Origin: Tribonema minus
Lineage: Eukaryota > Sar > Xanthophyceae > Tribonematales > Tribonemataceae
NCBI GenBank assembly: GCA_017506865.1
Contig: JAFCMP010000042.1
Coordinates: forward strand, 62,001 to 126,000
Reading direction: 5' to 3'
Length of the DNA stretch: 64,000 nucleotides
Below are positions 6,379 through 59,149 of this stretch, piece after piece (positions within the stretch are counted from its first letter, which is position 1; every line of letters begins with the position of its first letter). The notes below the pieces were generated by a model, which saw only the letters and a list, made by a program, of their open reading frames with translations, had not been told where the DNA came from and did no database searches. A program made the position numbers and the translations under genes.

Positions 6379-6502
6379 ATGCGCAGCGTGGCCTGGCTGC
6401 TGCCCCTGCTGCTGGCTTCTCAGGCATCCGGTGCCGAGGAGCAACGGGAGCTTGCCAAAAAAGCAGCCGCCAAACCTGCGCTAGCAGTCAAGTGCGACGA
6501 TG
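6379..6502 (+). CDS. Exon 1: start codon and signal peptide
   Basis: ATG at 6379, followed by a basic residue and a hydrophobic core (VAWLLPLLLA), then a small-residue cleavage region (SQASGA). A Lys/Ala linker follows and the exon ends in KCDD before g|gtgagc. An ATG 33 bases upstream in the same frame (6346) would put a polar leader before the core, so 6379 is preferred. Confidence 0.75.
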
Positions 6503-9500
6503 GTGAGCGAGCAGGCGCTAGCAGGACTGACCGCCTGAGACACCTCCAGTCTGGCTACCAGTTTGACCTTGATTTCGTTTGTTTTCACACGCATCCGTTT
6601 CGTGATCCTTTGGATTCCAGGGCGAGGAGGAGCGAACTGTGAGCCGTGCACGGGGAACACGTACTCGTTGAAGTCATTGCCAGGAGACTCTCTGTGCAGG
6701 GATTGCCCGGCAGGCTTCGGCACATTAGATCACAAGACATGTTCAGGTATGTGGACGCATTGATCATTGCAGCAAAGCGCAAGCGGGACTGGATCAGCTC
6801 ATTGCAGACGTTCGTGCAGCGTCATCGGATGCCGTCAATCGGATGTTCTGTCAGCATACGGCTTGTGACTCAGCAATTTTCGGTTTTGCTCTTTCACGAA
6901 GTTAATCAACAGACGTCGCGACATGCAATAAACTCTGACTGCCTGTTGATCCGCCGGATCCAATTCGGCATCAGGATTTTGCTCCTCGGCCAGTAGTTGG
7001 TTTTCTGTGACGCAGCTGAGCATGCACTGATCGCAAAATTTCGAGTTGTCGATGTCAAGCATTCAAGCAACGACAAGTGCCAACGCGCATGCCAGGGATG
7101 CTGCTTCTATGTAGCAGTTGCTTGCACTAGAAGGCATGGGCCTAGAGATTTTCATCATGTTACAGAAGTTTAAGTCCATCTGCTTGTGATCTTGCTAGGC
7201 AGAATCTTGTGTGCTGACGTGTGGCGGCTTGCGAAGCTGTCAAACGTGTTTGCTGGTGGTGGCGCGCGGACGACATAGAGAGACCTTGCAAATATTGTCA
7301 TGGCTGTTGTATGTACTGACTCTCGCCGTGTGAACATCATAGGGTGTCCGTAAGGCCTTTGTTCAGAGTAGAGGTCACACTTACTGCCGCAGGATTATTG
7401 CGCTGCAGTGCACTGGCAGTCGTCAGCAACGCATGTACACTCTCGATCGGCCGCGTAACATATCACACGTTCTGTGACTGTTGCGCAGGTGCTCATAGCG
7501 CAGCGTGAGATGTCAAGGTTGCACACAGTCTGCAAGTAAATTCAACAGTCTGCATCACTACAATTAACGCACGGCGCTAACAGATAGGAGCCAGCTAGGG
7601 GGGGCTGGGCCTGTTGTGGATAATTGTGGGGGTATGAAGCCCCTCAACGGCGATGACTAGTTGTAGTTGAGAACGTGCCAAGAGCAGAGTATCCCCTCGT
7701 CATGTGAGCAGCTGATTGGGGTACTTGAAAATCAGGTCTGGCAAGCATAGTCTACCTGACATGTGCGCGACACGCACCGTTCCACGACTAGTCGACGTGC
7801 GAAGCGCGCCCGGGCGCGAGCGCCAACACAAAAATGCAGCGTCAGCGTCCAAACAAAACATGCAAGGCACGGTGCTCTGAAGGCTTGCCGTAGCAAATGT
7901 TTGGATGAAATCCTGTCAAAAATGGTCATTGTATGACATCTGCTGACTCGCACGTCAACCACCGACGCTCTTGTTGCATCGTGGAAACGCCGTGGGCGCC
8001 ACCGCCAGTGTGCCTGCCGGGCTTTGGCGGCAAGGACTGCAAGCGGTGCGAGGGGGAGACGTACTCGCCCGGAGACTCATTGCAGGACTGCCAGCGCTGC
8101 CTGCCAGGCTACCGGATCAGCGACAAGAAGGACGCGTGTCAAGGTGAGCGGTGGCGCGCGACGTGCTTGTAATGTTGAAGTTGAAGTAGCATGACGCTGC
8201 AGGAATGCCAGCGCTGCCTGCCGGGCTATCGGATCAGCGACAAGAAGGACGCGTGCCAAGGTCAGCGCTAGCGCGCGGCGTGCTGCAATCTTCAAGTTGA
8301 AGTGCCATGACTCACTAGTAGTGGCGGCACTTTGCCTTACTAATGCGCTTGTGTCAATGGAGTGCGTGAGTAGGGGCGCGGGCGTTTGGTGCATGCAATC
8401 GTACACATACATGTATGCATGTTGGTGTCAAATTACACCAAGATCAGAGCATGTGTTGCAATGGGTAACAAATAGTCGGTGGTTTGCGGACTGCCACCCT
8501 GGTCGCCATCTACCCAGTTCTGTGGCTTTCTGTCGTGTGAACATTGCACAAATTTGCCAGCGTCACCGCAACAGCTAGGCCACCGGATGGGCGAAGACGA
8601 GCCATGTCATAGGTATTGAGTACTGCACCTCATGTCACGTGTGTTAAACCTCAATGCCAAGCACGCTGTATGTGTGTAGAATGTGCTCACTTGTTTTGTG
8701 CAGGCCATGCACCTACTTGCGGCTTCGACAGATTGCCTTCGAGAGGTACTTTGTACTCGTCCTCATCCTCAGATGACATGACAGCAACACGAGCATAAAT
8801 CCAAGATGTCCGTGTTGCCCAAAAACACAAGTGTGCATTCACCAACAAACAAGCATTGTTGTGGCGGTTACGTGACCGCTGTAACTGTGACTGCGAACAG
8901 ACACAAACCATTGAACTACAGGCTAGACACACAGATCAAGCCCATATTCCAACAGCGGCAGCTGAACCCCTGGAGTGTAATCGTGGCCCACATCTGAAGG
9001 ATCGTCGCAGGTGATGATGGCGCAGTGTGAGCTGTGCCCGGCAGTGTAGAACACTACTGCTGACATGTCAAACACACAAAGCATGCGCGTTGTGTAGCAC
9101 GCGCTGCCCACAGCGCACCTTGCAGCAATCTCAGTGCCCCCCCCCCCGGTGCCCAAAGATCTTGCAGTGATCATACCACCAACTACACACACCTGAAAAC
9201 CCCATTTCGCAGACTGCAAGCCCGGCTACGGCGACCCCAGGACCCCCTGGGGGTCGGACGTGGCCTACACCTCTAGGGTCCTTACGGACGACGCGGCGCC
9301 GCAGTGCGAGCCGTGCCGCGAGGGCAGCATATCGTCAGGAGGGTACTTTGCGGAGTGCAAGTGGTGCGACGCGGGGTTTTTGAGCAGCGCGGACAGGACG
9401 CAGTGCAGAGGTGAGCGCTGTGGCACGCACGCCGTGTACTTCAACTTGGGGTATTCCAGTTGCGGAGTGCAAGCGGTCTGATGCGGCGAACAGCGCGGAC

Positions 9501-12500
9501 AGGTCGCAGTGCAAGGGTGAGCGCTGCGGCACGCACGCCATGTACTTCAACTTGAAGTATTTCGGTACCCGAACATGTACAGTAGCGTCTGCTTGGCAGC
9601 GCAGACAAAACACAGCGCAGAGGTGAGCACACGCCGTGTACCTCAACCTCAAGTACACTGTACACACTTCGACGTACCTGGCGTCAACGGTGCCTGCCTA
9701 GGAGCACAGAGGTGCGCGATGTGCACGCGACATGCAAAGTCACTTGAAGTACGTTGAACATATCTAGAACTTCAACAGCATCTGCTTGAAGGGCGGGACA
9801 GCACTGATGAGTGTAGAGGTGAGCATTTTGTACCACGTGCAATGTACCTTGACTTGAAGTATGTCAAGCGCATCCAATACCCCAATAGTATCTCCTTGGA
9901 AGCACTGATGGGACTGGGTGCAGACGTGAGCGCTGTGGCACGCACTTTGTACTTCAACTTGATGTAAGTTGAACAGTTGCGGTTTGCACAGAGTCTGTTG
10001 GATGCGCGCATAGGACTGAGTGCGGAGGTAACAGCGTTGTGGTACGCAATGAAGTAGTTCAACAAGAACTATTATGGGCGAGGTCACTACTCCGCTAGTG
10101 TCGGCTCGCAAGTAGGGACTTCATCGACTTGTGCAGTGTGAAGTTGTGAGTGCTGCCTGTGAACTTCAAAACCAGCAGAGCTGCAGCAGTGCATTGGCAT
10201 TGATGGCAAGGGCTACCAGTTCAAGCTCCAGAACGGGTGTGTGCACGAGAGAATGCATTATCTGAAAGTACCGAAATCGCTCACCTACTGTCAATGTGCC
10301 CCATTTTGAACCGCATGTAGTATGTGATGCCTGTGAGCTGTGCAATCTGTTAACCTACGTCAACCTGCACAAGTGGTTGAAATGGCAGCACGCCATGCAG
10401 CACAGCACAAGCTATGGAGACTAAGTACATGTGAAGTCGTAGTGGTTGAAGTTGTAGTGATGCATGGCTCCATGCGGACAGACTGGCTGCACCCCAATTG
10501 CAGGTGCCACTGATCCCCCCTCTGAAACAGTACTGTATGTCCGAATGATAGCACTTGAAGTTGACTCTCCGTTGCCACGCGCGCGCCCCGCGCAGGCTGC
10601 AAGCCCGGCTACGGCAGCCCGCTCACCGACTGCGTCGATTGAAGTTGTAGTGATGCCTCAGCCTGGAAAAACTGATCGTATCGATTGCAAGCGCACCGAC
10701 GATTCTTCTGAAGTTCTTCTGAAGCAGCACTTCCGAATTACTGCAAGTTGACTCTCCGCTGCCGTCCACGCTCTGTGCAGGCTGCAAGCCTGGCTACGGC
10801 AGCCCGCTCACCGACTGCGTGGAGTGCAAGGGCAAGGTGTGCTCGCCCTGCACGGGCAACTCTGTGGCCACCGGCGGCATCGGCTCGCAGTGCACGCAGT
10901 GCCCCGCGGGCTACATCGCCAATGACGAGAACACCGCCTGCTCGGGTACGTGCTTTCTGTTGGTTCTCGCTGAGGGCGCGAAACAGCCCAGATGATTGGC
11001 ATCAAAGCTTGTGGTACAGAATCTATGAGTCATTTTCTGTTTATTCTCGCTCAGGGCGCGAAGCAGCCCAGATGATTGATATCAAAGCCTACAGATCAGA
11101 ATCTATGCGTCATGTGGCGATGTGAAAGTGTCTCAATGATGACCACATCTTTCATGTACTTGCGCTTGAGGGGCGGAAACCGTATTGTGCGCCACGGCGT
11201 ATGAACACGTACGCCCCTACTGAGCTTGTGCACACTTTGGCTGCTGGGAGCATACACAACACTCGTTAACTCCGTAAAGCTATCTACGGATGGGATGCAG
11301 CCGTGGCCTCCTCCGCTGCTGCCCGTTGCGTACTACTCTAATGGATACCGTGCAGTGACAGCACCTCTGGCCTGAGCTCAATGTCATCATTGCTGGGTCC
11401 CCAGTTTAGGGCTACTGCCGCAGCAAAGATGCCTTGCAGTGACAGCAGCTCTGGCCTATGCTTGGTTTCATTATCGCTGGGTCGCCAGTTGAGCCATTGT
11501 TGGTTTGTCGCCGGTTGAGCGCTGCTGCCGCAGTCGCAGCACGGCCTTACCAGTGCAGCGCCGGTCACGCTATGGAGTCCAGAACACCGGTTCAGATTGT
11601 GCCTCGTTGCGCTCGCGGCGTTGACGGAGCTGGCTCCTGGGCGATACAGATGCAGCGGTCTGATGGCCCTGTTGCTAGGGTGTGTGGTGACACGCACCCA
11701 TGGATGCATTGTATCAATGCAATGACTTTTACGGCGAGCTCCGCCAAGTACGCAAGCACTTGCAGAAAGGAGCATGGTAGACAATGAGTGCGGGCACAAT
11801 GCCGGGGTATGCAGCACAGCCAGTCTCTAAGCAGGTGGCGAAAAGCGCAACTTGCGCCAGTACGAGGCATCAGCACGTCAACCGGCCAACAGCTGCTGGT
11901 AACACATTTTGAAGATCAGGATGCGCACGCACGACGGATGCCAGAAGGGTACCGCAACACACAATGCATACGTGAGACCATAGGCTGTGCTGCAGTGAGA
12001 GCGCGGGCAGACAATCTGGGCGCATCGAGCACTGTTCACAACGTTCTGCGGCGACATCATCAAACTTCAACTTGAAGTACGAGTCAACACCGCCGCGCTC
12101 CACCCCTCAGACCGCACATTCGCGCTGTGAGACATGGTGTTTTTGCTGCTGCCTCCGGTGTCCTGTGCAGACTGTGCCGCCGGTCACGGCGGCGAGGACT
12201 GCCACACGTGCGCCGGCAACACGTACTCCCCTGGGCCGCACCCCAGCGAACCCGCCTTTGGCGAGTGCAAGGTGTGCGCAACGGGGTATCAGCCCAATGC
12301 GCTTCACAGCGACTGCAAAGGTGAGAGGTTGGGGGGCAATGGGCTGGCAATGGGGCTGTATAACCAGTGTTGGTGTCAGGGTCGCATTGGACAAGGGTAG
12401 GGTTATAGCCAGAGTTGGCTTTGACCCGCCTCAGCATGAGCTTTGTGCAGCGGGCTACCAGCCCAACGAGCTTCACAGCGACTGCAAAGGTGAGAGGCTG

Positions 12501-51500: not shown

Positions 51501-54500
51501 ACACCGTCTTACCCTCACTTTAACCCTAACTCCTGCCGTGTATTGGTCACGTCTACAAGACAGCATGCACAGTTCAAGTAAAACGTAGTAGGGGATAGAG
51601 TGAGTGGTGGAGACAGCTCCAGAGTTAGCTGCAGGTGATGTCGGGTTAGGGTCAGGTTAGCACTAAGTTGCAATTAGGGTTAGAATTAGGGTTAGGGTGA
51701 GCTTGGGTTACGACTTGTCACAGCAAACAATAATGCTCAAATTCTGATTCACTGCGCTGCCCATGTCTGTGTCCCACAGTCTGCAAGGACGGAAAGTTCT
51801 GGGACCAGACTTCGTGCGAGGCGTGCCCCGCGCGGAAGGAGCCGACCGCCGACAACGAGGACTGCCGTGAGTACACACAGAGTTCATGACTTGAGTACAC
51901 ATAAGTTCATGTGTGCCCATCCCCAAAATGATTTATGTTTGATGGCGCACCTGTCTTCAGTGTGTGCTGCTGTGTGGGCCTCCTAAGCATTATGCTGCTT
52001 TGTCTTCCTGCAGAAACTTCAACCTTGCACATGATACAACGTCCTGTGTGATCGTTGATCAGGGCTTCACGTATCTACCAGTGAGGCGCATTGCGTAGCT
52101 GCCGGGGCGGCACAGTGATCCGTAAAGTAACGTCGGCTGTGCTAAGTGGTAGACTTCGTTTTTTTTGGTAGTCACTGACATTGATGACGACATTCCCTTT
52201 GGCACGGGCTGCCTCCATGCCAGGGCTCAGCCAGCATACTCTAAGTATACTCTTCAGTAGGTGCTACCTTGTCGCTTACCATGTCCACTCACCACTCACC
52301 TTTCTGATCTCCGGATGATGTTGCAATGTCTCTGCGTGCGACAGAGTGCCAAGGCATCTTCAGGGTCGCAGACAACGGCGCATGCGGTGAGTGCCGCGTG
52401 CACTGCTTGTGCTGAGAATACTTTGCGTTCCACTCAGTTTCTGGCATTTGAAGTTGGCGGCACTCAAGGTAGTCTACAGGAGGTTGAAGGTTTTGCGGCC
52501 ACGTGCACGCACCAGAGAGCCAATATTGTTGTAAAACCCAAGTGTTTGCACACAATCAATGCGCGTCGGAGTACAATACGTACCTCTCCGCTTCAGGTGT
52601 TTCAGTACTACTTCTTTATCATGCCCGATGAGCTGACTGCCCCGCAAGTAGTTGAGCGCTACTTCAGCGCGGCGTGAAATGCCTACTTCAAAGATGAAGT
52701 TGTCAGTGCTCAGCTGACTATACACGCCTGACGAACCACGTTCAGCAATGAGCATCCCTGCTGTGTTTCAAGCACGGTCAACTGACCCGGGCACAACCGT
52801 CATTTCACGCATTGCTGCGCCAGTAGAGCCGCGCAAGCTCCATTCTGCGTATGTCACCAGCAGATGTAGCAGATACTTCAAGTTTGCGCACGCCTCAGCG
52901 CTGCCTTATATTGTGTTAAACGCACCCAATGTTCACACGGTTTCTTGTCTTGCTTGCATTGAGCGATGAGGGCTGCGTGCACACAGCACACACAAGCACC
53001 ATCCTTTTTTCCTTCGCACAGCTACACCAGTAGACCCTCACAGGCTTGTCCTATAGGTAGTATGATCGGTCCAGATATCAGTTTCGATTTGCACAAGCCG
53101 TTGTAACCCCGTAGCTTCATCTTACCGAGTGTCACCCGCGCGGCTGTACCGCTCTCCTGTTGTCGACGTTGCAGTCTGCCAGAACGCCACCGAGTACTTC
53201 AACAGCAAGGAGTGCCTGGCGTGCACCGGTAGCGACGAGACACCCAACGAAAGCAACGATGCCTGCAGTAAGTGACTCGACCTACTGCATACTAGCACCT
53301 GGGACGTTAACGATGGCTTATGAGACGCCGAAACACGACCAACGATGCCTGCAGTAGGTGCTTCAAGCCACTGCTCACTAGGGTTAGGGCTATGGCCAGG
53401 AGCAGGAAAAGGGCGTAAGAATCAGGGTTAGGGGTCACGGTTGGGGTGAGGGTTGAACTTCGCGCCCTGGATTATATATGCACGAGACGCTGAAAGCGGC
53501 CAGTGATGCCTGCAGTAAGAGTTTTAACCTATTGCTCACGTGCGCCTTGGTTAAGGGTGACCTATTGCTTGCCAGCACCTGGGACATGGACAAAGGCTGC
53601 AGTGGTTTCCTTGATACGAACGATGGCCACGGTGCTACTGCCGCTTGGGCAATCGGTTGTGACTGCTTGCACCAATCACAGACCGTGGTGCTCGCACCGG
53701 GCTCTTGTACTGCGTTCGCGCATGGCTGTTGCCCGCTTGATTAGCACACGGTATCAGCACAGTGCCACGTGGCAGGGTTAAAATGGGGTTGGGTTAGGCT
53801 CAGGGTGGAGGGTTCGAGTTGCCATGTGTTCGCACTGGCCGCCTAACTTGCCATTGCTCTTTGATGAAGCAGGTTGGGGTTAGGCTCAGGGTGGAGCGTT
53901 AGAGTTGCCATGTGTTCGCACTGGCCGCTTAACTTGCCATTGCTCTTTGATGAAGCAGAGCTCAGCACAAAGATGGGATTTTCGGTGCTGGTGAGCACTG
54001 ACGTGTCACCTCAGACAGCGGTCGCGTGTCCTTTCTGACTGCACACAAACAGCATGAGGTTCTCTGTGCTGAACACGCAATGTGCACGCCCCTGCTGCCT
54101 TGCCTCGCCGTGCAGCCTGCGTGGGCCAGCTCACCAAGGGCGGCGCCAACAATGTCTGCGGTACGTATGTAGAGTTACTGTCAACTTCAAGCACTCGAGG
54201 TTGATTGCCTTCAGTTCAGAACCAGAAACTGTACATCTGCATTCCTGCGCTCGAGGAACATGCTATGAAAGCCTTGATTTATGCCTTGAAGAACCGGAGC
54301 AGCAGAAGGCCACGAGAGTCGCACAGTGTCTGCCGAGGCTTCAAGAGAGGGCGTTGTGCCCTGTTGAAGCATGCATCAAGGCCCCAATGAAGCCTCTCAT
54401 TTGGCGTGTGTGTAAGGGCCAAAGTGTCTTGCACACGCAAAGCGCACATTGTTGCAACGTGTACATGCATCAGGTCAGGGCAACCTAGGACGGCATAGAA

Positions 54501-56116
54501 GTGCGCCCTGCATTGAAGTGTTGTCCACTCATGTCGCGTGCAACGGCTCGCAAACAAGCCCACCACCGCACATAGGCCTTGGCTATGACGCATGTCCAGA
54601 ACTGCTGCTGCCTGCTGATGCGTTGCGGGCTAACGGCACACACTGGCACTCAAACAGACTCCGAGCCAAAGTCAACTCTTCCGATCTAAAGTTCAATTAA
54701 CTGTTGTCGACACCAGCTCTTGCAAATGCGAGTATATGGAGCTGAACTTCAACTTCTCTTGTCCGTCACCAGGCTGCCACGGCGCCAACGAGATCAGGGT
54801 GGGCAACGGCTGCGCCACGTGCAACCCGGGCATGGAGCCTAACAGCACCGGCGACGCTTGCGGTGAGTGCAGCCTTTTCCTCATCCCAACTTCAATTCTT
54901 ACTTCAAATAAGGCCTGCCGGAACTCAGTCTGGCTTCAGCACATATGCCGGTTGACTGCGCGTGCGCTGTCACCGAAGAACGGCATTGCGTCTGATGTTC
55001 ATCACTTGAAGTCTGAAGTTAGCCCGAGCGCTGCTGCTACCTTTGGTGGTGGTTACGTCTGTCACGTCGGCAGTTTCACCGGCGCCGACAAGTTATGATG
55101 GGCTGCCACCATTTCTGACACGTAGATGGCTGCTCTGGGAGCAGATTAAAGCTCATTGGAGATCATGGTTCGTGCACCGCTGCGGTGGTGAGCCCGGCCG
55201 AAAGCAGGCTGTCTGAACCGCACGTGCGCATAGCCATGTGCGGCAGCAGCGCTGCTACATACCCCACAGGTCATCAGATGAAAATACACGACTACCCCCT
55301 CCTTGCGCCCAATCAGAATGTGCTTCGGCGGTCACGTGGGAACCGGCAGTACCCGTGTTCAATGGCATAGGGCATCACCGCTGCAACAATACCTCAATGC
55401 TGAGACATGCTGCATGCTGTTGAACTCTGTCAGGTCGGAAGGCATCAGACCGCACCTGGTTCTTCAACCCACCGCTGCATCCTGTGCCACGCGCGCAGCG
55501 CGCACCGAACCGCTGGTCAACAAGCGCGCCGCCACCAACGTTCTCTTCATTTGCATTTACTCAACTTGCGCTGATGCTGAGATGTGCTGCACGACATCGC
55601 CCTTGGCCGCCACCAGTATCCTCTTCAGTCGCATTGACTTGACTCGCGCTGATACTGAGATATGCTGCAAGATATCACCTTCGACGAAAACATGCCACGC
55701 GCTCACCCTCCCCCCCTCCCCCTTGTGCCCCCCCCCCCCCCCCCCACGCGCGCGCGCGCGCAGTGTGCACCGCCACGCAAGTTGACAAAGCCGCCACCAA
55801 CGTCCTCTTCAGCCAGGCTGACAGCACCTCCGTCACGGCGGCAGCGCTCACCGCGCCGCAGGCCGACGCGCGCGCGTGCTGCAGTGCCTGCGGCAACCTC
55901 TACGCTGCAGGGCAGTCGTGCGTGGGCTGGGGCTTCAAGACCGCCGACGGCACCTGCACCATCTTCGCAGTTTCGTCGGACGTAACCGACGCGCCCGACG
56001 CGAGCGCCGCGTGCCCGCGCGGCAAGCGGCGCATGGGGCTGTGCAACGGCGACGGCCAGGTTATCGGCAACGGGCCGTGCCACCCGCCCGTGGTCGCCGC
56101 GTCGCGGCGCCAGTAA
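6379..56116 (+). CDS. Giant secreted cysteine-rich repeat protein (54 exons, whole gene span)
   Basis: Joined exons encode about 2,157 residues. Order: signal peptide (residues 1 to about 19, MRSVAWLLPLLLASQASGA); about 30 modules of the pattern CxPGYGG..C..CPAGTYS.GG....C..CP.G..S....T.C.G with five 15-codon mini-modules; a C-terminal half of short/long cysteine dyads ending in DN..CG; and a final PAN/Apple-like domain (residues about 2041-2157). The modules resemble EGF-like, GCC2/GCC3 and ephrin-receptor-like cysteine repeats of extracellular proteins. No transmembrane helix is visible, so a secreted or cell-surface/extracellular-matrix role is inferred. All 53 introns are GT-AG and phase 1, which allows exons to be duplicated or skipped without frame change. 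Introns make up about 87% of the locus and are filled with partial copies of neighbouring exon edges. The function is unknown; adhesion or carbohydrate/protein binding is a guess from the PAN domain. Confidence 0.75.
6621..6746 (+). CDS. Exon 2: Cys module
   Basis: Acceptor ttccag, donor gtatgt; 42 codons, phase 1/1. Shows NCEPCTGNTYS, then CRDCPAGFGT, ending KTCS. It lacks the usual CxPGYGG opening and starts with GRGGANC, so it is a slightly shortened module. Confidence 0.75.
8009..8143 (+). CDS. Exon 3: Cys module
   Basis: 45 codons between cgccag and gtgagc. Canonical: VCLPGFGGKDCKRC, GETYSPGDSLQDC, CLPGYRISDKKDACQG. Its 3' half is duplicated in the following intron. Confidence 0.85.
8082..8310 (+). 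repeat. Exon 3 tail: two tandem units of about 115 bp
   Basis: The unit from tgcagga.tgccagcgc through the donor and the ttgaagttgaagt motif occurs twice. The second copy (8199-8310) keeps a gtcagc donor-like site, but its acceptor would be out of phase, so it is probably intronic. Confidence 0.7.
9213..9410 (+). CDS. Exon 4: extended Cys module
   Basis: 66 codons (ttcgcag/gtgagc). Opens DCKPGYGDPRTPWGSD, carries a roughly 20-residue insert before QCEPCREGSISSGG, and closes AGFLSSADRTQCRG. Confidence 0.85.
9411..10060 (+). repeat. Decaying array of exon 4 tail copies
   Basis: Five or six units of about 90-120 bp. Each resembles the end of exon 4 plus the donor (gtgagcgctg.ggcacgcac) plus a tacttcaacttgaagta motif. 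The first copies (around 9454-9516 and 9575-9622) are recognisable; later ones (9700-10040) are strongly diverged. None has a usable acceptor in phase 1. Confidence 0.65.
10595..10637 (+). repeat. Partial copy of the exon 5 head
   Basis: cgcag followed by sequence encoding CKPGYGSPLTDCVD, then non-homologous DNA. It duplicates the acceptor and first 40 bases of exon 5, 186 bp upstream of the real exon. Confidence 0.75.
10781..10945 (+). CDS. Exon 5: Cys module
   Basis: 55 codons between tgtgcag and gtacgt. GCKPGYGSPLTDCVECK, CSPCTGNSVATGGIGSQC and CPAGYIANDENTACSG follow the family spacing. Confidence 0.85.
10957..11110. repeat. Two tandem intronic units of about 75 bp
   Basis: Both units contain ttctcgctnagggcgcgaa, cagcccagatgattg and cagaatctatg. 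The core is shared with dispersed copies at about 45637 and 57403 on the other strand. Confidence 0.7.
12171..12320 (+). CDS. Exon 6: Cys module
   Basis: 50 codons between tgtgcag and gtgaga. DCAAGHGGEDCHTCAG, NTYSPGPHPSEPAFGEC, CATGYQPNALHSDCKG. Confidence 0.85.
12321..13110 (+). repeat. Exon 6 tail array with TTAGGG-like spacers
   Basis: Four diverging copies of the exon 6 tail (GYQPNELHSDCKG-like) with its donor and a G-rich, ggttaggg-containing spacer, at about 12451, 12577, 12718 and 13057. The unit is about 130-150 bp, the last about 330 bp away. Only the first keeps an acceptor. Confidence 0.75.
12451..12489 (+). CDS. Possible 13-codon cassette exon (exon 6 tail copy)
   Basis: tgtgcag acceptor, 39 nt, gtgaga donor, phase 1/1, encoding roughly GYQPNELHSDCKG. 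It could be spliced in without a frameshift, adding a half-module, or be an inert copy. It is not counted among the 54 exons. Confidence 0.3.
13500..13649 (+). CDS. Exon 7: Cys module
   Basis: 50 codons (accccag/gtgagg). DCAPGYGKNDKGDACVAC, NQYSPGGPSAICKPCPPG, TANHDDCGG. Confidence 0.85.
13819..14053 (+). repeat. Exon 8 head array
   Basis: Three partial copies of the acceptor and head of exon 8 (NCAPGKGGAWC...) separated by tacataccc-rich spacer, at about 13830, 13910 and 13965. Each stops before the module is complete and has no donor. Confidence 0.75.
14054..14197 (+). CDS. Exon 8: Cys module
   Basis: 48 codons (ctgcag/gtgagt). HNCAPGKGGAWCEDCPAG, TYSPGGVGAQCIACPEG, SFSYAPAAAMCKG. Partial copies flank it on both sides. 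Confidence 0.85.
14260..14600 (+). repeat. Exon 8 tail copies
   Basis: A close copy of the last 75 bases of exon 8 plus donor (14262-14342, with an indel shifting the frame) and a more diverged one at about 14530-14590 (tacgctgccgccttcgccatgtgc). Confidence 0.65.
14984..15187 (+). CDS. Exon 9: fused mini-module plus full module
   Basis: 68 codons (gcgcag/gtgcgt). It begins with a 15-codon-type module (CPDGETSDATRTAC), then runs straight into VCLGGYGDPAETGDQIKRC and CGEGATTNRDRTACDG. Elsewhere these two module types are separated by an intron, so an intron was lost here, or never gained. Confidence 0.85.
15188..15560 (+). repeat. Exon 9 tail copies
   Basis: Two decayed copies of the exon 9 tail (CAACGEGVTANRDRIVCD at about 15307-15363; a worse one at about 15488-15545). 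Each is followed by donor-like sequence and, for the first, a ggttgg/ttagg spacer. Confidence 0.7.
15972..16109 (+). CDS. Exon 10: Cys module
   Basis: 46 codons (ttacag/gtgagt). VCLPGYGGPHCDKCPAG, TFSAGGAGAVCGTCPLG, AGAARCAG. Confidence 0.85.
16683..16727 (+). CDS. Exon 11: 15-codon mini-module
   Basis: 45 nt between tgtgcag and gtgagt, preceded by a run of about 20 C. Encodes ACPYGEAPSSDQTQCG across the phase-1 junctions. Confidence 0.75.
17208..17369 (+). CDS. Exon 12: Cys module
   Basis: 54 codons (gtgcag/gtatga). VCKSGFGNPYEGPAPQ, KCEACNEGEIGDGG, CKAGTTSNSDHTACDG. Confidence 0.85.
18076..18234 (+). CDS. Exon 13: Cys module, CCGGKG subtype
   Basis: 53 codons (cacag/gtaggt). VCLPGYGGKNCDLCPAG, TYSPGGKRSCCGGKGPKC, ICPVGFITSKAGSSVCAG. 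Nearest relative in the window is exon 23, with the same GGKRSCCGG insertion. Confidence 0.85.
19068..19112 (+). CDS. Exon 14: 15-codon mini-module
   Basis: 45 nt between aagcag and gtaagc, encoding ACPNGETSNNSRDDCG. Similar to the beginning of exon 9. Confidence 0.7.
19800..19850 (+). repeat. Partial copy of the exon 15 head
   Basis: gtgcag followed by sequence encoding VCQAGYGDSAAG, then divergence. It duplicates the acceptor and first 40 bases of exon 15, about 180 bp upstream. Confidence 0.75.
19987..20148 (+). CDS. Exon 15: Cys module
   Basis: 54 codons (gtgcag/gtgagt). VCQAGYGDPAADNPQEDERK, CDKMAYSLGGTRTPCVLC, NSTSNSERTKCEG. Confidence 0.85.
20203..20316 (+). CDS. Possible cassette exon: in-phase copy of exon 15
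   Basis: gaagag acceptor-like site, 114 nt, gtgagt donor, phase 1/1. Reads KCYRCDKMAYSLGGTRTPC and NSTSTGERTKCEG. It is nearly identical to the second two-thirds of exon 15 with both boundaries usable, but the acceptor lacks a pyrimidine tract. Confidence 0.35.
20317..21045 (+). repeat. Decaying array of exon 15 tail copies
   Basis: At least four further copies of the exon 15 tail (NSTS...ERTKCEG-like) at about 20414-20501, 20540-20563, 20625-20710 and 20820-20890, and a last one at about 20960-21043. Similarity falls with distance from exon 15. Confidence 0.7.
21230..21844 (+). repeat. Exon 16 head array
   Basis: Four units of about 150-190 bp with gcgcag, PGYGG.GCGEC, GG..AEC..CSAAT-like coding sequence, then a cctatcctat-rich intron piece, ending at the real exon 16. 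The frame stays open across much of the array (21227-22042), a consequence of the repeat structure and not a separate gene. Confidence 0.75.
21845..22027 (+). CDS. Exon 16: Cys module with extra CxxC
   Basis: 61 codons (gcacag/gtgagt). VCFPGFGGPGCGECPAG, TFSAGGVGAECQQCSAG, then ADSTGNTVCQACPVTET and APDRQSCG. Contains one extra half-module compared with exon 10. Confidence 0.85.
22028..22460 (+). repeat. Exon 16 tail array
   Basis: Three copies (ACPVTKTSAPDRQSCG-like) at about 22131-22175, 22276-22320 and 22409-22458. Spacers contain gttgaagt and ggggtttgaggattga. The acceptor-like cag before each is in phase 0, so they would break the frame if used. Confidence 0.75.
22590..22655. repeat. 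CCCTAA-like interstitial string
   Basis: About ten consecutive imperfect cctaaccc units in intron 16. It is the longest C-strand telomere-like run in the window. Confidence 0.7.
22838..22862. repeat. Poly-G tract
   Basis: Long uninterrupted G run in intron 16. Its length is likely to be unreliable in assembly. Confidence 0.7.
23064..23365 (+). repeat. Exon 17 head array
   Basis: Two upstream partial copies (VCLPGYNSCGESKHCAKC at 23068; VCLPGYGSCSKSKRCEKC at 23217), each with its acceptor. They break off into acttcaactctaa or acttcaacttgaa, that is, at the inverted-repeat motif. Confidence 0.8.
23366..23512 (+). CDS. Exon 17: Cys module
   Basis: 49 codons (ttgcag/gtgcgt). VCLPGYGSCGESKRCEKC, RGAYSRGGDRASCARCPG, APNADHTICNG. 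Confidence 0.85.
23504..23645. repeat. Two tandem units of about 63 bp after exon 17
   Basis: The donor region (ggtg.gcgcgcag...acttcaagtgc...ggacaagcaa.gtgtcgtg) is repeated once, giving a second donor-like gtgtgcgc. Confidence 0.6.
24193..24372 (+). CDS. Exon 18: Cys module with extra CxxC
   Basis: 60 codons (gcgcag/gtgagt). ACKPGYAGPNCDACPAG, THSAGGVNATCEPCGDG, then TCTACPRGETSNFGNTHCG. The last part resembles the 15-codon mini-modules, fused in. Confidence 0.85.
24470..24790 (+). repeat. Exon 18 tail copies
   Basis: Two clear copies of the exon tail (cnaacttcggcaacacgcgctgcggtgag type) at about 24488-24525 and 24622-24670, and a trace near 24760. Spacers carry acttgaagtatg. Confidence 0.7.
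24830..25410 (+). repeat. Exon 19 head array (about eight copies)
   Basis: Repeats of ttctgttttacagtgtgcaaagc at about 24870, 24955, 24990, 25070, 25130, 25230, 25285 and 25370, spaced 40-100 bp. Each is a copy of the acceptor plus the first bases of exon 19 (VCKAGHGVGA...). Several are out of frame or truncated. The spliceosome is offered a ladder of near-identical acceptors. Confidence 0.75.
25411..25554 (+). CDS. Exon 19: Cys module
   Basis: 48 codons (ttcacag/gtgagc). VCKAGHGVGAWGGKCGPC, YSYSAGGAREQCASC, NATSNADRTACEG. Confidence 0.85.
26130..26560 (+). repeat. Exon 20 head array
   Basis: Three units of about 140 bp (at about 26138, 26278 and 26420) that carry gttgaacttgcag, CK.GYGG-like and ggtggcgtcggcgccgatt sequence with indels. 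The fourth unit is the intact exon 20. Confidence 0.75.
26561..26695 (+). CDS. Exon 20: Cys module
   Basis: 45 codons (ttgcag/gtgagt). VCKPGYGGPACDQCPAG, TYSLGGVGADCERCNEG, SAGSAKCTG. The most canonical module in the gene. Confidence 0.85.
26962..27006 (+). CDS. Exon 21: 15-codon mini-module
   Basis: 45 nt (gtgcag/gtgagt), encoding ACKSNEASNAARDACG. Confidence 0.75.
27422..27577 (+). CDS. Exon 22: Cys module
   Basis: 52 codons (ctgcag/gtacgt). VCKPGYMDVDPSATKTNC, CDKFSWGGDGAACQPC, GTVADEDRTACN. The split codon after the last Cys starts with a instead of g. Confidence 0.85.
27578..28535 (+). repeat. Exon 22 tail array (six copies) with TTAGGG-like spacers
   Basis: Copies of GG.GAACQPCADGTV.DEDRTA.N plus the gtacgtccacaact donor region at about 27667, 27815, 27990, 28187, 28360 and 28490. 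Spacing is about 130-200 bp, with ggttaggg and gtagggctt in every spacer. No copy has an acceptor immediately before it. Confidence 0.8.
28803..28961 (+). CDS. Exon 23: Cys module, CCGGGG subtype
   Basis: 53 codons (gacag/gtgagc). VCKPGYGGRDCALCPKG, YSAGGKRSCCGGGGPKC, SFVALAEGSSICTG. Paralogue of exon 13, about 10.7 kb upstream, and the same length. Confidence 0.85.
29325..29575. repeat. Minisatellite, unit about 22 bp
   Basis: About ten alternating units of the type gagcgttgccacactttgct and gagcgctgccaccctatcgcct in intron 23. Confidence 0.8.
29737..29781 (+). CDS. Exon 24: 15-codon mini-module
   Basis: 45 nt (ctgcag/gtgagt), encoding ACGRGEVANAARDQC, closest to exon 21. Its split codon starts with a, as in exon 22. 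Confidence 0.65.
30605..30748 (+). CDS. Exon 25: Cys module
   Basis: 48 codons (gcgcag/gtgagc). VCAPGYAYQGGACKQC, QYSLGGPKTEQCHACPA, TESNPERTECNG. Confidence 0.85.
31105..32251 (+). repeat. Exon 26 head array (about ten units)
   Basis: Tandem units of about 105-125 bp. Each is ccnctaccag or similar acceptor, tgcaagcccggcta..ggcg/aagggctgcggcgtct, then an attcattcatc-rich spacer with tggattcatcgcctgaatgag. The last unit is the intact exon 26. Copies nearest the exon are closest to it. Many keep a good acceptor but no donor. Confidence 0.85.
32252..32410 (+). CDS. Exon 26: Cys module
   Basis: 53 codons (accag/gtactt). VCKPGFGGEGCGVCPDG, SDGGKGVQCMPCPAG, then a Thr/Val-rich end (DGTVTAPVCTG). 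Confidence 0.85.
33136..33180 (+). CDS. Exon 27: 15-codon mini-module
   Basis: 45 nt (gcgcag/gtgagt), encoding VCPKGQAPNEDQTECG, similar to exon 11. Confidence 0.75.
33690..33780 (+). repeat. Partial copy of the exon 28 head
   Basis: Reads LQLSEGHAPPAYPLLAGN in one frame, close to exon 28 (LQLSEGHAPPAYPLLTGD), then breaks off. It is about 180 bp upstream of the real exon. Confidence 0.75.
33873..34220 (+). CDS. Exon 28: longest internal exon (116 codons)
   Basis: Acceptor ctgcag after a C-rich tract, donor gtgagt. Begins VCAPGYGLQLSEGHAPP, has ECVRCAGNAISAGG and CLQCPEYSECDSCG, then a long insertion rich in Gly/Ala/Pro encoded by homopolymer G and C runs, ending NKSHTQCNG. The insertion could hide an unrecognised intron (a gtacgc sits at 34076), but the frame is open throughout. 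Confidence 0.7.
34395..34530. repeat. Minisatellite of cacacagtatac type
   Basis: Five or six units of about 22-27 bp containing cctcacacagtatac in intron 28. A single further copy lies at about 34705. Confidence 0.65.
34555..34615 (+). repeat. Partial copy of the exon 29 head
   Basis: Reads GYGGKDCAICPAG-like after a gctag acceptor, then diverges. About 190 bp upstream of exon 29. Confidence 0.7.
34760..34942 (+). CDS. Exon 29: Cys module
   Basis: 61 codons (gtgcag/gtaagc). VCQPGYGGKDCAICPAG, TGQGCRPCPEGMISDEG, CEDESLTADEQHRTCG. Confidence 0.85.
34990..35840 (+). repeat. Exon 29 tail array (eight copies)
   Basis: Copies of EDESLTADEQHRTCG plus the gtgagcatacatgaac donor region at about 35036, 35136, 35274, 35360, 35497, 35585, 35690 and 35788. 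Units are about 100 bp, alternating with a second, slightly different unit to give a roughly 220 bp higher-order repeat (35100-35300 versus 35320-35520). The coding part is almost unchanged between copies. Confidence 0.85.
35028..35078 (+). CDS. Possible 17-codon cassette exon (exon 29 tail copy)
   Basis: gtgtcag acceptor, 51 nt, gtgagc donor, phase 1/1, reading VCEDESLTADEQHRTCG. It is the only member of the array with both splice sites in phase, so it could be included without a frameshift. Confidence 0.35.
35925..35990 (+). repeat. Partial copy of the exon 30 head
   Basis: gcgcag followed by VCAPGHGGRSCQE-like coding sequence, then a jump to aacttcaagttc (which also occurs inside exon 30), then a TTAGGG-like spacer. 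Confidence 0.75.
36113..36301 (+). CDS. Exon 30: Cys module with His/Asp-rich tail
   Basis: 63 codons (gcacag/gtgagc). VCAPGHGGRSCKEC, then FGYGGSFAECEVCPDTAKYG, and an unusual end, KHTHAGLDAAVDVGIGCNG. Last of the large modules. Confidence 0.8.
36877..36919 (+). pseudogene. Decayed 15-codon mini-module
   Basis: ctgcag followed by a sequence related to the mini-modules (EGANPDRTCN in one frame), but the first Cys and the rest are in different frames and no donor follows. Probably a dead mini-exon between exons 30 and 31. Confidence 0.45.
37190..37234 (+). CDS. Exon 31: short dyad exon
   Basis: 45 nt (caacag/gtgagt), GCPGDLKYQAGKRTCG. First of the short/long alternation that fills the C-terminal half. 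Confidence 0.7.
37495..37560. repeat. TTAGGG-like interstitial string
   Basis: Six or more imperfect ttaggg units in intron 31, bounded by unique sequence. Confidence 0.75.
37754..37849 (+). CDS. Exon 32: long dyad exon
   Basis: 32 codons (cacag/gtgagt). ECDHADSYRDPNNLCQAC, TRDPQDDSQCG. Confidence 0.75.
38264..38305 (+). CDS. Exon 33: short dyad exon
   Basis: 42 nt (tcgcag/gtgagt), VCKSGFTDNGAGTCG, preceded by a C run of about 20 within 35 bp of the acceptor. Confidence 0.7.
38800..39146 (+). repeat. Exon 34 head array
   Basis: Four units of about 100 bp (ctgactcgctaccctgacttgagactctt, gtgctgagcagtgtgcac, tacgtcattggcac), at about 38810, 38905, 39005 and 39105; the last leads into exon 34. 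Confidence 0.75.
39147..39242 (+). CDS. Exon 34: dyad exon lacking its last Cys
   Basis: 32 codons (gagcag/gtgagt). VCTSPTQYVVGTECKDL, then QTATFQGDAY with no final CG. The exon end tact|gtgag looks like the usual tgcg|gtgag minus three bases, which removes the terminal Cys but keeps phase 1. Confidence 0.65.
39243..39625 (+). repeat. Exon 34 tail copies
   Basis: Three copies (accaagcagacggccacattc.agggcgac-like) at about 39345, 39455 and 39572, with donor-like gtgag and a ccctagc-rich spacer. Confidence 0.7.
40311..40403 (+). CDS. Exon 35: long dyad exon
   Basis: 31 codons (ccgcag/gtgagg). VCVDEHEILDANGKCVKC, LANSDDTHCG. Confidence 0.8.
41331..41378 (+). CDS. Exon 36: short dyad exon
   Basis: 48 nt (gacag/gtgagc), GLCLGPLVLDAKGERCG. 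The LDAKG...CG ending matches exon 48. The first Cys is displaced by one residue. Confidence 0.55.
41998..42105 (+). CDS. Exon 37: long dyad exon
   Basis: 36 codons (tcgcag/gtgagt). VCPDLDHYFDPNDGTTGMC, then RLVPNVEDDTCG. Confidence 0.8.
42511..42549 (+). CDS. Exon 38: short dyad exon
   Basis: 39 nt (ttgcag/gtgagt), VCKAALTADGDRCG; similar to exon 43. Confidence 0.7.
43395..43493 (+). CDS. Exon 39: long dyad exon
   Basis: 33 codons (ggcag/gtgagt). VCLESTYYDSAEDKCKAC and an acidic end, QVVDDDNDGCG. Preceded by a C-rich tract. Confidence 0.8.
43500..43760. repeat. ggggtatgta-type minisatellite
   Basis: About nine scattered ggtatgta units in intron 39, some in a longer repeated block (tgtgct.atgggtatgtatata). 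Confidence 0.55.
44178..44228 (+). CDS. Exon 40: short dyad exon
   Basis: 51 nt (gtcag/gtgagt), ECNAALDLVYDATDKKCG. Confidence 0.7.
44755..44850 (+). CDS. Exon 41: long dyad exon, FWD subtype
   Basis: 32 codons (gacag/gtaagc). VCKDDTKFWDAMSKTC, AARKEPAAGNEHCG. Close to exon 49. Confidence 0.8.
44851..45115. repeat. Exon 41 tail copies and GATCATGATC palindromes
   Basis: Two diverged copies of the exon 41 tail (gagccagccgcggaccaccaac..., aggagccggctgcgcactac) alternate with inverted-repeat blocks such as atcacgatcatgatcatgaa and tgatcatacat. These could form hairpins. Confidence 0.6.
45391..45450 (+). repeat. Partial copy of the exon 42 head (distal)
   Basis: ctcagagtg followed by aggacatgttcatca and ccccagcgcgtccacc, similar to exon 42 (ECEDMFIVDPNAST), then divergence. 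Confidence 0.7.
45637..45665 (-). repeat. Dispersed repeat core, copy 1
   Basis: tcgcgccctgagcgagaatta also occurs at 57409 and, in reverse orientation, at about 10966 and 11041. Copies are in different genes or introns, so this may be a fragment of a dispersed element. Confidence 0.5.
45745..45805 (+). repeat. Partial copy of the exon 42 head (proximal)
   Basis: Nearly identical to exon 42 from the acceptor through ECEDMFIVDPSASTK, then breaks off. It lies about 165 bp upstream of the real exon. Confidence 0.75.
45914..46051 (+). CDS. Exon 42: fused short + long dyad
   Basis: 46 codons (ttgcag/gtgagt). ECEDMFIVDPNASTKC (short type) runs directly into CPAGKVLHEGACVAC and ESNAANDACG (long type). 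Same arrangement as exon 47. Confidence 0.85.
46400..46900. repeat. Exon 42 tail copy followed by a gagcatcatca minisatellite
   Basis: One frameshifted copy of the exon 42 tail with donor (46405-46446) leads into about 15 units of 25-40 bp built from gtgagtgaccctgntgagcatcatcatcaggcag, that is, from the donor sequence of exon 42. The array seems to have grown from the splice-donor side. Confidence 0.7.
47372..47410 (+). CDS. Exon 43: short dyad exon
   Basis: 39 nt (tcgcag/gtaagc), VCKAGFKEEGGICG. The intron begins gtaagca followed at once by four exact ttaggg units. Confidence 0.7.
47417..47444. repeat. TTAGGG array at the start of an intron
   Basis: Four perfect ttaggg units begin seven bases after the exon 43 donor, which looks like an insertion at or near the splice site. 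Confidence 0.8.
47935..48501 (+). repeat. Exon 44 head array
   Basis: Three upstream partial copies of exon 44 with acceptors at 47936, 48148 and 48334 (VC.TAG.YW.D.SCE type). Spacers contain ccctaaccctaac. Spacing is about 180-210 bp. Confidence 0.8.
48502..48591 (+). CDS. Exon 44: long dyad exon, YWD subtype
   Basis: 30 codons (cctcag/gtgaga). VCATAGNYWDGDSCEACP, KKPAADNNSCG. Confidence 0.85.
49154..49192 (+). CDS. Exon 45: short dyad exon
   Basis: 39 nt (ctgcag/gtgagt), ECQDKFVLLDGKCG; pairs with exon 50. Confidence 0.75.
49800..49940 (+). repeat. Exon 46 head copies
   Basis: A short fragment at about 49805 and a longer one at 49878-49933 (VCSDSKYLGSDGVCAACPA) upstream of exon 46. Confidence 0.75.
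50024..50113 (+). CDS. Exon 46: long dyad exon
   Basis: 30 codons (ttgcag/gtgcgt). VCPDGKYLGADGVCAACPA, VSNDANDGCG. Confidence 0.85.
50245..50628 (+). repeat. Exon 47 head array
   Basis: Three or four units of about 105-120 bp, each with aacttcaagggtgactcaccna...cccgcagtctgtg. At about 50452 the copy extends to gtgcgtcgatatttgacaag, that is, VCASIFD. The spacer includes the aacttcaag half-motif. Confidence 0.75.
50629..50769 (+). CDS. Exon 47: fused short + long dyad
   Basis: 47 codons (ccgcag/gtaagt). VCASIFDEASASCACPDGK, then STCEACTDPKKESNATNDAC. Paralogue of exon 42. Confidence 0.85.
50830..50975 (+). repeat. Exon 47 tail copies
   Basis: A fragment at about 50838-50865 (gagagcaacgccacgcgtgac) and a better one at 50927-50968 (PKKEYNVTNDAC plus gtaagtggc). 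Neither has an in-phase acceptor. Confidence 0.7.
51191..51235 (+). CDS. Exon 48: short dyad exon
   Basis: 45 nt (ttgcag/gtgagg), ECKAAFLDADAKGLCG; related to exon 36. Confidence 0.75.
51780..51866 (+). CDS. Exon 49: long dyad exon, FWD subtype
   Basis: 29 codons (cacag/gtgagt). VCKDGKFWDQTSCEACPA, EPTADNEDC. The split codon after the last Cys starts with c. Confidence 0.85.
52345..52386 (+). CDS. Exon 50: short dyad exon
   Basis: 42 nt (gacag/gtgagt), ECQGIFRVADNGACG. Confidence 0.7.
53175..53267 (+). CDS. Exon 51: long dyad exon
   Basis: 31 codons (ttgcag/gtaagt). VCQNATEYFNSKECLAC, ETPNESNDAC. Confidence 0.8.
53335..53525 (+). repeat. Exon 51 tail copies
   Basis: accaacgatgcctgcagtaggtg at about 53338 and gccagtgatgcctgcagtaagag at about 53498 repeat the last bases of exon 51 with the donor. 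Confidence 0.65.
53785..53960. repeat. Tandem duplication of about 85 bp
   Basis: ggttgggttaggctcagggtgga...ctctttgatgaagca occurs twice in tandem in intron 51, nearly identical, so it is recent. Confidence 0.8.
54116..54160 (+). CDS. Exon 52: short dyad exon
   Basis: 45 nt (tgcag/gtacgt), ACVGQLTKGGANNVCG. Confidence 0.7.
54773..54862 (+). CDS. Exon 53: long dyad exon
   Basis: 30 codons (accag/gtgagt). GCHGANEIRVGNGCATC, MEPNSTGDACG. Last cysteine dyad before the terminal domain. Confidence 0.8.
55480..55690 (+). repeat. Exon 54 head copies
   Basis: Two or three copies related to the first bases of exon 54 (gccgccaccaacgttctcttca; gccgccaccagtatcctcttcag), each followed by a gctgatnctgagatntgctgca spacer. 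Confidence 0.7.
55764..56116 (+). CDS. Exon 54: terminal exon, PAN/Apple-like domain and stop
   Basis: Acceptor gcgcag after a C run; 353 nt ending in TAA at 56114-56116. Contains ARACCSACGNLYAAGQSC, then VGWGFKTADGTCTIFA, the CxGxxF...GTCxxF pattern of PAN/Apple domains, with a later Cys pair near LCNGDGQ and GPCHPP. PAN domains bind proteins or carbohydrates. No membrane helix or GPI-like tail follows; the end is basic (ASRRQ). Confidence 0.8.
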
Positions 56117-58870: not shown

Positions 58871-58873
58871 CGC

Positions 58874-59084: not shown

Positions 59085-59149
59085 CTGCAGGGGGGCACAG
59101 GGAGGGTTGGGGGGGGGGGGGGGGGGGGGTTGTTCGCAGTGCTCAGCAA

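What the first reader, a model, noticed from the sequence alone, without database searches (positions are those of the whole stretch)
8082..55690. Introns built from tandem, decaying copies of the neighbouring exon's edge
At 20 or more exons, the adjacent intron contains 1-10 partial copies of that exon's own border: either acceptor plus exon head (upstream) or exon tail plus donor (downstream). The intact exon sits at one end, and in several arrays similarity falls with distance from it. Such repeated splice-site arrays could be a mechanism of intron lengthening, a source of new in-phase exons, or splice-site decoys. I know of no named system in which exon-edge arrays flank most exons of one gene.
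Basis: partly seen in the sequence, partly recalled or inferred. Interest (0 to 1): 0.9.

Follow-up and report, generated by a model that had tools for sequence, protein, structure and literature searches.

The report
Exon borders copied into neighbouring introns
In this stretch of a eukaryotic genome, about half of the exons of one large gene, and several exons of two neighbouring genes, have tandem, slowly decaying copies of their own border lying in the next intron, which shows one way in which introns can grow without harming the protein.

Summary
The main gene (+ strand, 6379-56116, about 48 exons of a Cys-rich repeat protein) has, at 34 of 93 mapped exon borders (24 of 47 exons), 1-10 tandem copies of that border in the adjacent intron: 88 copies, each best matched by its own exon (88/88); 0 borders in 20 shuffles.

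The copies behave as neutral debris. Parent-copy divergence is ~10% at codon position 2 and at GT/AG, but ~23% at codon position 3 and 22% in intron: one versus two freely drifting lineages. Only 1 of 85 copied sites would extend the exon in frame and without a stop. Decoy and new-exon readings are not supported; intron lengthening is (arrays span 32% of intron DNA; 96% of intron 28-29).

Unexpected: arrays sit at borders far more often than uniform duplication allows (31 of 36; 7-8 expected), and neither exon conservation nor detectability explains it. The elementary event, a tandem duplication across a splice junction, is known (potato RdRp, human repeats). Serial, border-biased arrays were not found in my seven literature searches. 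The organism is unknown, so relatives could not be compared.

The parts
6379..56116 (+). Main gene: signal-peptide ATG at 6379 to TAA near 56116; about 48 exons of a Cys-rich (Ephrin_rec_like/TNFR-like) repeat protein; exons 2-39 and 41-49 mapped
   Evidence: no transcript evidence
8081..8331 (+). Array 3t: exon 3 tail + donor, 1 copy
9348..10063 (+). Array 4t: exon 4 tail + donor, 3 copies (4 hits)
10553..10826 (+). Array 5h: acceptor + exon 5 head, 1 copy
12270..13113 (+). Array 6t: exon 6 tail + donor, 4 copies
13818..14102 (+). Array 8h: acceptor + exon 8 head, 2 non-overlapping copies (3 hits)
14131..14344 (+). Array 8t: exon 8 tail + donor (second, weaker copy at 14552-14603)
15106..15594 (+). 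Array 9t: exon 9 tail + donor, 2 copies
19779..20017 (+). Array 15h: acceptor + exon 15 head, 1 copy
20042..21074 (+). Array 15t: exon 15 tail + donor, 6 copies, with a nested 98% identical 64-nt duplication at 20477-20605
21247..21950 (+). Array 16h: acceptor + exon 16 head, 3 copies
21967..22490 (+). Array 16t: exon 16 tail + donor, 3 copies
22963..23427 (+). Array 17h: acceptor + exon 17 head, 2 copies
24327..24772 (+). Array 18t: exon 18 tail + donor, 2 copies
24812..25466 (+). Array 19h: acceptor + exon 19 head, 5 non-overlapping copies (8 hits)
25704..25750 (+). Single weak copy of exon 19 tail + donor (19t)
26081..26653 (+). Array 20h: acceptor + exon 20 head, 3 copies
27173..27228 (+). 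Single weak copy of exon 21 acceptor + head (21h)
27495..28575 (+). Array 21t: exon 21 tail + donor, 6 copies
31118..32305 (+). Array 25h: acceptor + exon 25 head, 10 copies, period about 115
33566..33953 (+). Array 27h: acceptor + exon 27 head, 1 copy
34497..34829 (+). Array 28h: acceptor + exon 28 head, 1 copy
34887..35854 (+). Array 28t: exon 28 tail + donor, 8 copies, with a 221-nt two-unit higher-order duplication (35043-35357 and 35264-35579, 93%)
35892..36150 (+). Array 29h: acceptor + exon 29 head, 1 copy
36423..36471 (+). Single weak copy of exon 29 tail + donor (29t)
38786..39180 (+). Array 32h: acceptor + exon 32 head, 3 copies
39204..39661 (+). Array 32t: exon 32 tail + donor, 2 copies by the probe; one search shows a further decayed one, read by eye
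44805..45091 (+). Array 37t: exon 37 tail + donor, 2 copies
45374..45959 (+). Array 38h: acceptor + exon 38 head, 2 copies
46017..46582 (+). Array 38t: exon 38 tail + donor, 1 copy, running into a 29-nt tandem repeat
47884..48550 (+). Array 41h: acceptor + exon 41 head, 3 copies
49827..50080 (+). Array 43h: acceptor + exon 43 head, 1 copy
50305..50651 (+). Array 44h: acceptor + exon 44 head, 2 copies
50733..50983 (+). Array 44t: exon 44 tail + donor, 1 copy
55490..55811 (+). 49h: acceptor + head of the last exon, 1 copy by the probe; a 78-nt repeat at 55528-55679 lies in the same stretch
59085..59398 (-). Minus-strand gene, last exon (M0): acceptor + head copies upstream (2 probe hits; a third read by eye)
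60032..60444 (-). Minus-strand gene, exon M1: 3 copies of acceptor + head
59688..59989 (-). Minus-strand gene, exon M1: 4 probe hits (some overlapping) of tail + donor
61928..62441 (-). Minus-strand exon M2: 2 copies of acceptor + head
61515..61690 (-). Minus-strand exon M2: 2 weak copies of tail + donor; donor assignment tentative, the alternative donor at 61728 gave no exon-bearing copy
2662..3025 (-). Minus-strand ankyrin-like exon: 1 copy of acceptor + head (no copy of its tail)

Best explanation
A border-duplication ratchet that lengthens introns. (1) Shown by anatomy: DNA segments of about 100-200 nt, with one end inside an exon and the other in the flanking intron, were tandemly duplicated across existing splice junctions. 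(2) Follows from geometry: after such a duplication, only the border still joined to the rest of the exon restores the original mRNA, so the other copy is silently left in the intron. (3) Shown by divergence: the left-over copies drift neutrally while the parent border stays constrained. (4) Shown in array 28t, inferred elsewhere: once seeded, arrays also grow by duplication among the copies. (5) Shown: arrays span about a third of the intron DNA of this gene. (6) Inferred, not shown: the events are border-biased because their breakpoints favour exon bodies. A guess at the cause is replication or repair errors of about nucleosome or Okazaki-fragment size, anchored in the GC-rich exons (68% GC against 53% in introns). 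No function is needed for the arrays.
For: 34 of 93 borders, 88 copies; 1 junction-crossing hit on the wrong side of the exon against 76 on the right side; 0 of 93 borders in 20 shuffles; 88/88 match their own exon. Divergence by site class: codon 1 12.4%, codon 2 9.9%, GT/AG 9.6%, codon 3 23.4%, intron 22.0%; codon 1+2 against 3 p 1e-22, codon 3 against intron p 0.35: one drifting lineage against two. Splice dinucleotide intact in 31/35 acceptor and 31/43 donor copies. Random reading frames. The copied exon part is shorter than the exon at 34 of 34 borders and often ends abruptly (by eye). A 221-nt higher-order duplication at 93% in 28t; copies cluster on borders (variance 3.2, mean 0.95; 59 empty borders, 36 expected by Poisson). 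Span 13,734 of 43,461 intron nt. Border bias: 31 of 36 arrays, 7.2 expected, p 3e-17; recomputed with machine-read units 6.7 to 8.0 expected, p at most 1e-14 even without the marginal 17t; with exons masked, 15 of 29 arrays lie within 25 nt of a border, 2.4 expected, at most 9 in 5,000 placements; simulated detection of intron-only duplications is at least 90% up to 15% one-lineage divergence, and 29 of 33 borders have a copy younger than that. Offset to the nearest copy: median 162 nt at borders (min 96), 42-86 nt in the five non-border arrays, p 4e-4. Heads and tails equally affected (18/47, 16/46). Same pattern in two other genes.
Against: The cause of the border bias is not shown; breakpoints show no common motif by eye. 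Borders without detected copies show no trace of faint older ones (58 borders, median percentile 0.51), so seeding is patchy rather than a steady rain on every border. The ordered ageing that repeated duplication from the exon predicts is seen in only part of the arrays (14 of 21). Larger units cross borders more often by chance, which explains part of the size difference. The exon map is mine, without cDNA, so which of the similar sites the cell uses is inferred from exon phase and conservation. Alignment ends are worn, so breakpoint positions are approximate.
Confidence: 0.78

Rival explanations
1. Selected splice-site decoys or regulatory arrays: the copies compete for or recruit spliceosome parts and are kept by selection.
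For: 62 of 78 junction-crossing copies still carry an intact AG or GT, and in acceptor copies the A and G agree at 34/35 and 32/35.
Against: GT/AG divergence (9.6%) equals that of codon positions 1+2 (p 0.70), which is what one neutral lineage gives; donor G and T agree at 39/43 and 34/43. With 166 dinucleotide positions the power to see weak selection is limited.
Confidence: 0.06
2. Source of new or alternative exon ends: copied sites are used and give in-phase protein variants.
For: The exons are phase 1-1 and the protein is built of repeated modules; some real exon heads are still 80-85% alike over about 45 nt, for example exons 13, 22 and 28, so module exons were duplicated in the past.
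Against: Added lengths are random modulo 3 and only 1 of 85 is in frame and stop-free. Copies hold only part of the exon next to one splice site (34 of 34 borders).
Confidence: 0.04
3. Ordinary tandem duplication, uniform along the gene, that looks border-linked only because exons are conserved and so keep copies recognisable.
For: Tandem repeats also occur inside introns (6 of 37 arrays without a mapped border); border probes (33 of 93) and interior intron probes (192 of 548) have a same-intron copy equally often. Detection does favour borders among old events.
Against: Of those 192 interior probes, 115 hit a true border, that is, they lie in border arrays. Placement null 7-8 against 31 of 36. 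Masking exons leaves a sixfold excess near borders. Detection is nearly equal at the ages seen.
Confidence: 0.1
4. Introner-like or other mobile elements.
For: Short intronic motifs recur in the window, such as ACTTGAAGT-type motifs.
Against: Each copy matches its own exon best (88/88); 8 inverted self-matches at any distance against 81 nearby direct ones; units are tandem and of variable size.
Confidence: 0.01
5. Assembly artefact.
For: The source of the assembly is unknown.
Against: Copies differ from parents by 0-37% at codon positions 1+2 and from each other, follow codon-position rules, and occur in three genes on both strands.
Confidence: 0.01

Closest known systems
Intron gain by tandem duplication across an intron-exon boundary, potato RdRp gene (PMC4974935; abstract and introduction read)
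   Same: The elementary event: a tandem duplication that crosses an existing intron-exon boundary and so copies acceptor plus exon head.
   Different: One event in one gene, and there a new intron arises in the duplicated region. Here no new intron is needed, the outer copy falls silent, and the event recurs at 34 of 93 borders with up to 10 copies.
Internal tandem repeats at exon-intron boundaries in human genes within segmental duplications (PMC2812944; abstract and passages read)
   Same: Tandem repeats at exon-intron boundaries alter gene structure; some coding units are 62-126 nt long.
   Different: Recent repeats that vary between near-identical paralogues and are often alternatively spliced; not serial decayed arrays at many borders of one gene.
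Rogers/Hellsten tandem genomic duplication model of intron gain (PMC3443670 passages; also described in PMC4974935; originals not read)
   Same: Tandem DNA duplication within genes supplies splice sites.
   Different: There an exonic AGGT segment is duplicated and a new intron position arises; here existing junctions are duplicated and the intron position stays.
Human introns from tandem arrays (Zhuo et al. 2007, PNAS; not held, seen only in reference lists)
   Same: By its title, tandem arrays and introns.
   Different: Not compared; the paper could not be read.
Introners (PMC9860276, search listing only; PMC11453091, passages)
   Same: A process that adds much intron DNA.
   Different: Introners are sequence families in many places; here every array is private to its exon.

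Membership tests
Tandem duplication across a splice junction (potato RdRp type) | Duplicated segment contains an existing splice junction with exon and intron on its two sides | tested here: met
   78 of 88 copies hold at least 8 nt on both sides of the junction
Tandem duplication across a splice junction (potato RdRp type) | A new intron arises in the duplicated region | not testable with these tools
   No cDNA and no relative found; the exon map needs no new intron
Rogers/AGGT tandem-duplication intron gain | The duplicated segment is exonic and the new intron lies at a new position | tested here: not met
   Units span existing junctions of phase 1-1 exons
Introners | Same sequence family found as introns at many positions | tested here: not met
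   88/88 copies match their own exon best
Duplicated alternative exons | Copies have both splice sites and an open, in-phase frame | tested here: not met
   The copied exon part is shorter than the exon at 34 of 34 borders; 1 of 85 in frame and open if used
Internal tandem repeats at exon-intron boundaries (human ITR type) | Head-to-tail repeat overlapping an exon-intron boundary | tested here: met
   31 of 37 arrays in the gene overlap a mapped border
Internal tandem repeats at exon-intron boundaries (human ITR type) | Copy number varies between paralogues or individuals | not testable with these tools
   No relative or second haplotype found

The most novel reading that the evidence does not exclude
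This genome has a mutational process aimed at exon borders: tandem duplications of about 100-200 nt arise preferentially with one end inside an exon, at both exon sides alike, and have built a large part of its introns from silent border copies. Introns here grow outwards from their ends rather than by insertions in the middle.
Probability: 0.35. Interest if true: 0.82.

Novelty: new variant of a known kind. Interest (0 to 1): 0.63.

Why it matters
How introns get longer is usually ascribed to transposable elements and small insertions (general knowledge). Here the source sequence of much intron DNA can be named, copies of different ages can be compared, and the conserved parent beside drifting copies gives a built-in clock. 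The arrays are a natural experiment on how a spliceosome picks one of up to eleven similar sites, and on why duplications favour exon borders.

Tried and rejected
Search for the organism and for relatives: last-exon protein, module alignment and ankyrin exon against viral contigs, none; module alignment against GTDB genomes, two bacterial matches of 17 residues; two DNA patterns in viral contigs, two hits each, taken as chance and examined only by a count of nearby tandem self-matches: 0 in five of the six fetched loci, 3 in L006. No Rfam match; one ARAGORN tRNA call.

Idea that tail copies begin at an AG (complete mini-exons), suggested by 28t and 3t: breakpoints looked at by eye; no rule held.

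Idea that exon penetration is junction-centred: the measured exon part is shorter than uniform (p 1.4e-4), but worn alignment ends bias this, so I do not rest on it.

Idea that borders without copies hide older ones: not so (58 borders; 4 of 58 below percentile 0.1). The wrong-side control there had 19% of 57 and 12% of 33 below 0.1, neither distribution significant. One border (2h) was left out for want of a mapped intron.

Idea that arrays age strictly outwards: only partly.

Equal rates at border probes (33 of 93) and interior probes (192 of 548) at first looked like no enrichment; 115 of the 192 hit a true border, so array-level counts were used instead.

Hand-entered numbers: one search used 36 of the 37 arrays (the telomere-like 37519 repeat dropped) with unit lengths typed from earlier output; one search repeats it with the smallest offsets and with a typical unit. 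The unit list was typed with at least one wrong entry, so its medians and p-value are not used; one search replaces them. The list of 31 includes 17t, which holds only 3 nt of exon. One search used 30 array spans typed (17t left out); spans include unaligned stretches between copies. One search used a looser E-value (0.01) than the main gene (0.001), and one M2 tail copy (E 0.006) depends on it. The printed output was cut in the middle; counts come.
Full report
What is there. The window is eukaryotic by its gene structure; no whole genome is held for it, and no relative beyond two 17-residue bacterial matches was found in the viral and GTDB collections. On the + strand lies one gene from a signal-peptide ATG at 6379 to a stop near 56116. 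I mapped 47 exons by a profile of their repeated module and by splice motifs. The 46 exons with both ends are multiples of three and stop-free in phase 1-1; they carry whole or partial Cys-rich modules of the C-x-P-G-Y-G-G...C-x-x-C-P-A-G-T-Y-S-x-G-G type or a shorter relative, with Ephrin_rec_like above Pfam's cut-off for the exon 16 frame (24.2 against 23.1 bits). Exon GC is 68%, intron GC 53% and GC3 86%. Introns have a median of 837 nt. The map has no transcript support.

The observation. A probe of up to 120 nt at each border finds, in the adjacent intron on the expected side, copies of that border at 34 of 93 borders: 18 of 47 heads (copies upstream) and 16 of 46 tails (copies downstream), 24 of 47 exons, ten of them at both borders; 90 non-overlapping hits, 88 with at least 8 nt of exon (two dropped), 78 crossing the junction. 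Shuffled intron interiors give 0 borders in each of 20 runs. In one search, 76 junction-crossing hits lie in the expected intron and 73 in all the rest of the window, where the paralogous modules are; only 1 of these 73 is in the intron on the other side of the same exon. All 88 copies score best against their own exon. Borders without detected copies show no fainter ones either (58 borders).

Direction and order. That head copies lie upstream and tail copies downstream is the geometry of a tandem duplication across a junction: the copy joined to the rest of the exon is the only one that restores the mRNA. The nearest copy is the most similar in 14 of 21 multi-copy arrays (7.5 expected); 25h, 28t, 21t, 16h and 16t show no fall with distance. 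Array 28t contains a 221-nt two-unit block repeated at 93%, so arrays also grow from within, and copies are clumped on borders (59 borders empty, 36 expected by Poisson). The offset to the nearest copy has a median of 162 nt over 34 borders (10-90%: 105-213), against 42-86 nt in the five tandem arrays of the gene that touch no mapped border (p 4e-4); longer units cross borders more often by chance, so part of this difference is expected.

What the copies are. Divergence between parent and copy by site class is the most telling result: codon position 1 12.4% (160/1294), position 2 9.9% (128/1296), the splice dinucleotides 9.6% (16/166), codon position 3 23.4% (302/1291), intron beyond position 6 22.0% (553/2514); intron positions 3-6 are in between (17.0%, 55/323). 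Sites that are constrained in the parent differ by about half as much as sites free in both. This is what neutral copies beside a constrained parent give. It leaves little room for selection on the copies: the copied GT/AG are neither better nor worse kept than coding positions 1+2 (p 0.70). If a copied site were used, the added length is random modulo three and only 1 of 85 would be in frame and open (the junction could be placed in 85 of 88 copies).

Effect on introns. Array spans cover 13,734 of 43,461 intron bases: 96% of intron 28-29, 92% of 18-19, 89% of 15-16. Counted by aligned bases, near repeats of any kind with an offset of at least 40 cover 11,672. Copy number correlates with intron length (rho 0.40, p 0.0065), although a two-group comparison of lengths is not significant (p 0.15). 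Without their arrays, introns that have them would be shorter than introns without (426 against 726 nt median).

Border bias. Of 37 arrays in the gene with an offset of at least 40 nt, 31 overlap a mapped border. Leaving out one telomere-like repeat and placing the other 36 units at random, with duplications inside exons or around whole exons forbidden, gives 7.2 expected (p 3e-17); with other unit choices 6.7 to 8.0 expected, and p is at most 1e-14 even if the marginal 17t is not counted. Could exon conservation create this, by keeping border copies recognisable? With all exons masked, 29 arrays are still found from intron sequence alone, and 15 of them reach within 25 nt of a border against 2.4 expected, maximum 9 in 5,000 placements. 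In a simulation of decay, intron-only duplications are found in at least 90% of cases up to 15% one-lineage divergence, and 29 of 33 borders with enough sites have a copy younger than that; above that age borders are favoured. The bias is thus real in this window. Its cause is open. Heads and tails are equally affected, which speaks for a DNA-level process without transcriptional polarity. The guess offered is breakpoints anchored in GC-rich exon bodies with a nucleosome or Okazaki-fragment scale; it is not tested.

Generality. That M0, M1 and M2 belong to one gene is an assumption. These exons were picked because arrays had been seen there, so 6 of 7 is not a rate; but they differ in protein from the main gene, so its module structure is not required.

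Against what is known. A single tandem duplication across an intron-exon boundary is described in a potato RdRp gene (PMC4974935, abstract and introduction), where a new intron arose. Tandem repeats at exon-intron boundaries that alter splicing are described in recent human duplicates (PMC2812944, passages). The AGGT model (PMC3443670, passages) duplicates exonic sequence and creates a new intron position. A review of intron evolution (PMC3488318, passages) mentions no such arrays in the passages seen. Introners (PMC11453091 passages, PMC9860276 listing) are sequence families in many places. In a chlorarachniophyte, intron growth is reported together with simple repeats and intron gain (PMC12730881, passages). 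In my searches I did not find a description of serial, decaying border arrays at a large share of a gene's exons; the library lacks most subscription journals, and Zhuo et al. 2007 could not be read.

Verdict. The feature is real, neutral in its present state, a source of intron length here, and a new variant of a known kind of event. The border bias is the part that would surprise a specialist and the part that a whole-genome count could settle at once.

Noticed in passing
window, 104 of 106 sites outside mapped exons: Short motifs of the ACTTCAA/ACTTGAA type occur 106 times after merging, against about 16 expected from equal base frequencies. Their nature is unknown; one 17-nt form was sought in viral contigs.
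   Followed up: partly
37517-37554, 47418-47445, 48401-48460, 22597-22655: Telomere-like TTAGGG/CCCTAA runs inside introns.
   Followed up: no
e.g. about 16650-16680, 33850-33868, 38225-38256, 55700-55745, 57984-58016: Runs of mostly C, several of them forming the pyrimidine tract right before an acceptor.
   Followed up: no
16683-16727, 19068-19112, 29737-29781, 33136-33180, 51191-51235: Very short 45-nt exons; exons 11 and 26 (the first and fourth listed) resemble each other at both borders, hinting at an older duplication.
   Followed up: no
33873-34220: Exon 27 is 348 nt long and carries a glycine/alanine-rich insert between the module and its last cysteine.
   Followed up: no
58642-58949: CGC/GCC-rich low-complexity block just beyond, or overlapping the end of, the last exon of the minus-strand gene.
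   Followed up: no
57646-57740: ARAGORN calls a 95-nt tRNA-Gln (anticodon ttg) on the minus strand; the length suggests an intron or a false call.
   Followed up: no
58874-59084, minus strand: Last exon of the neighbouring gene ends in a hydrophobic stretch, so that gene may encode a membrane-anchored protein.
   Followed up: no
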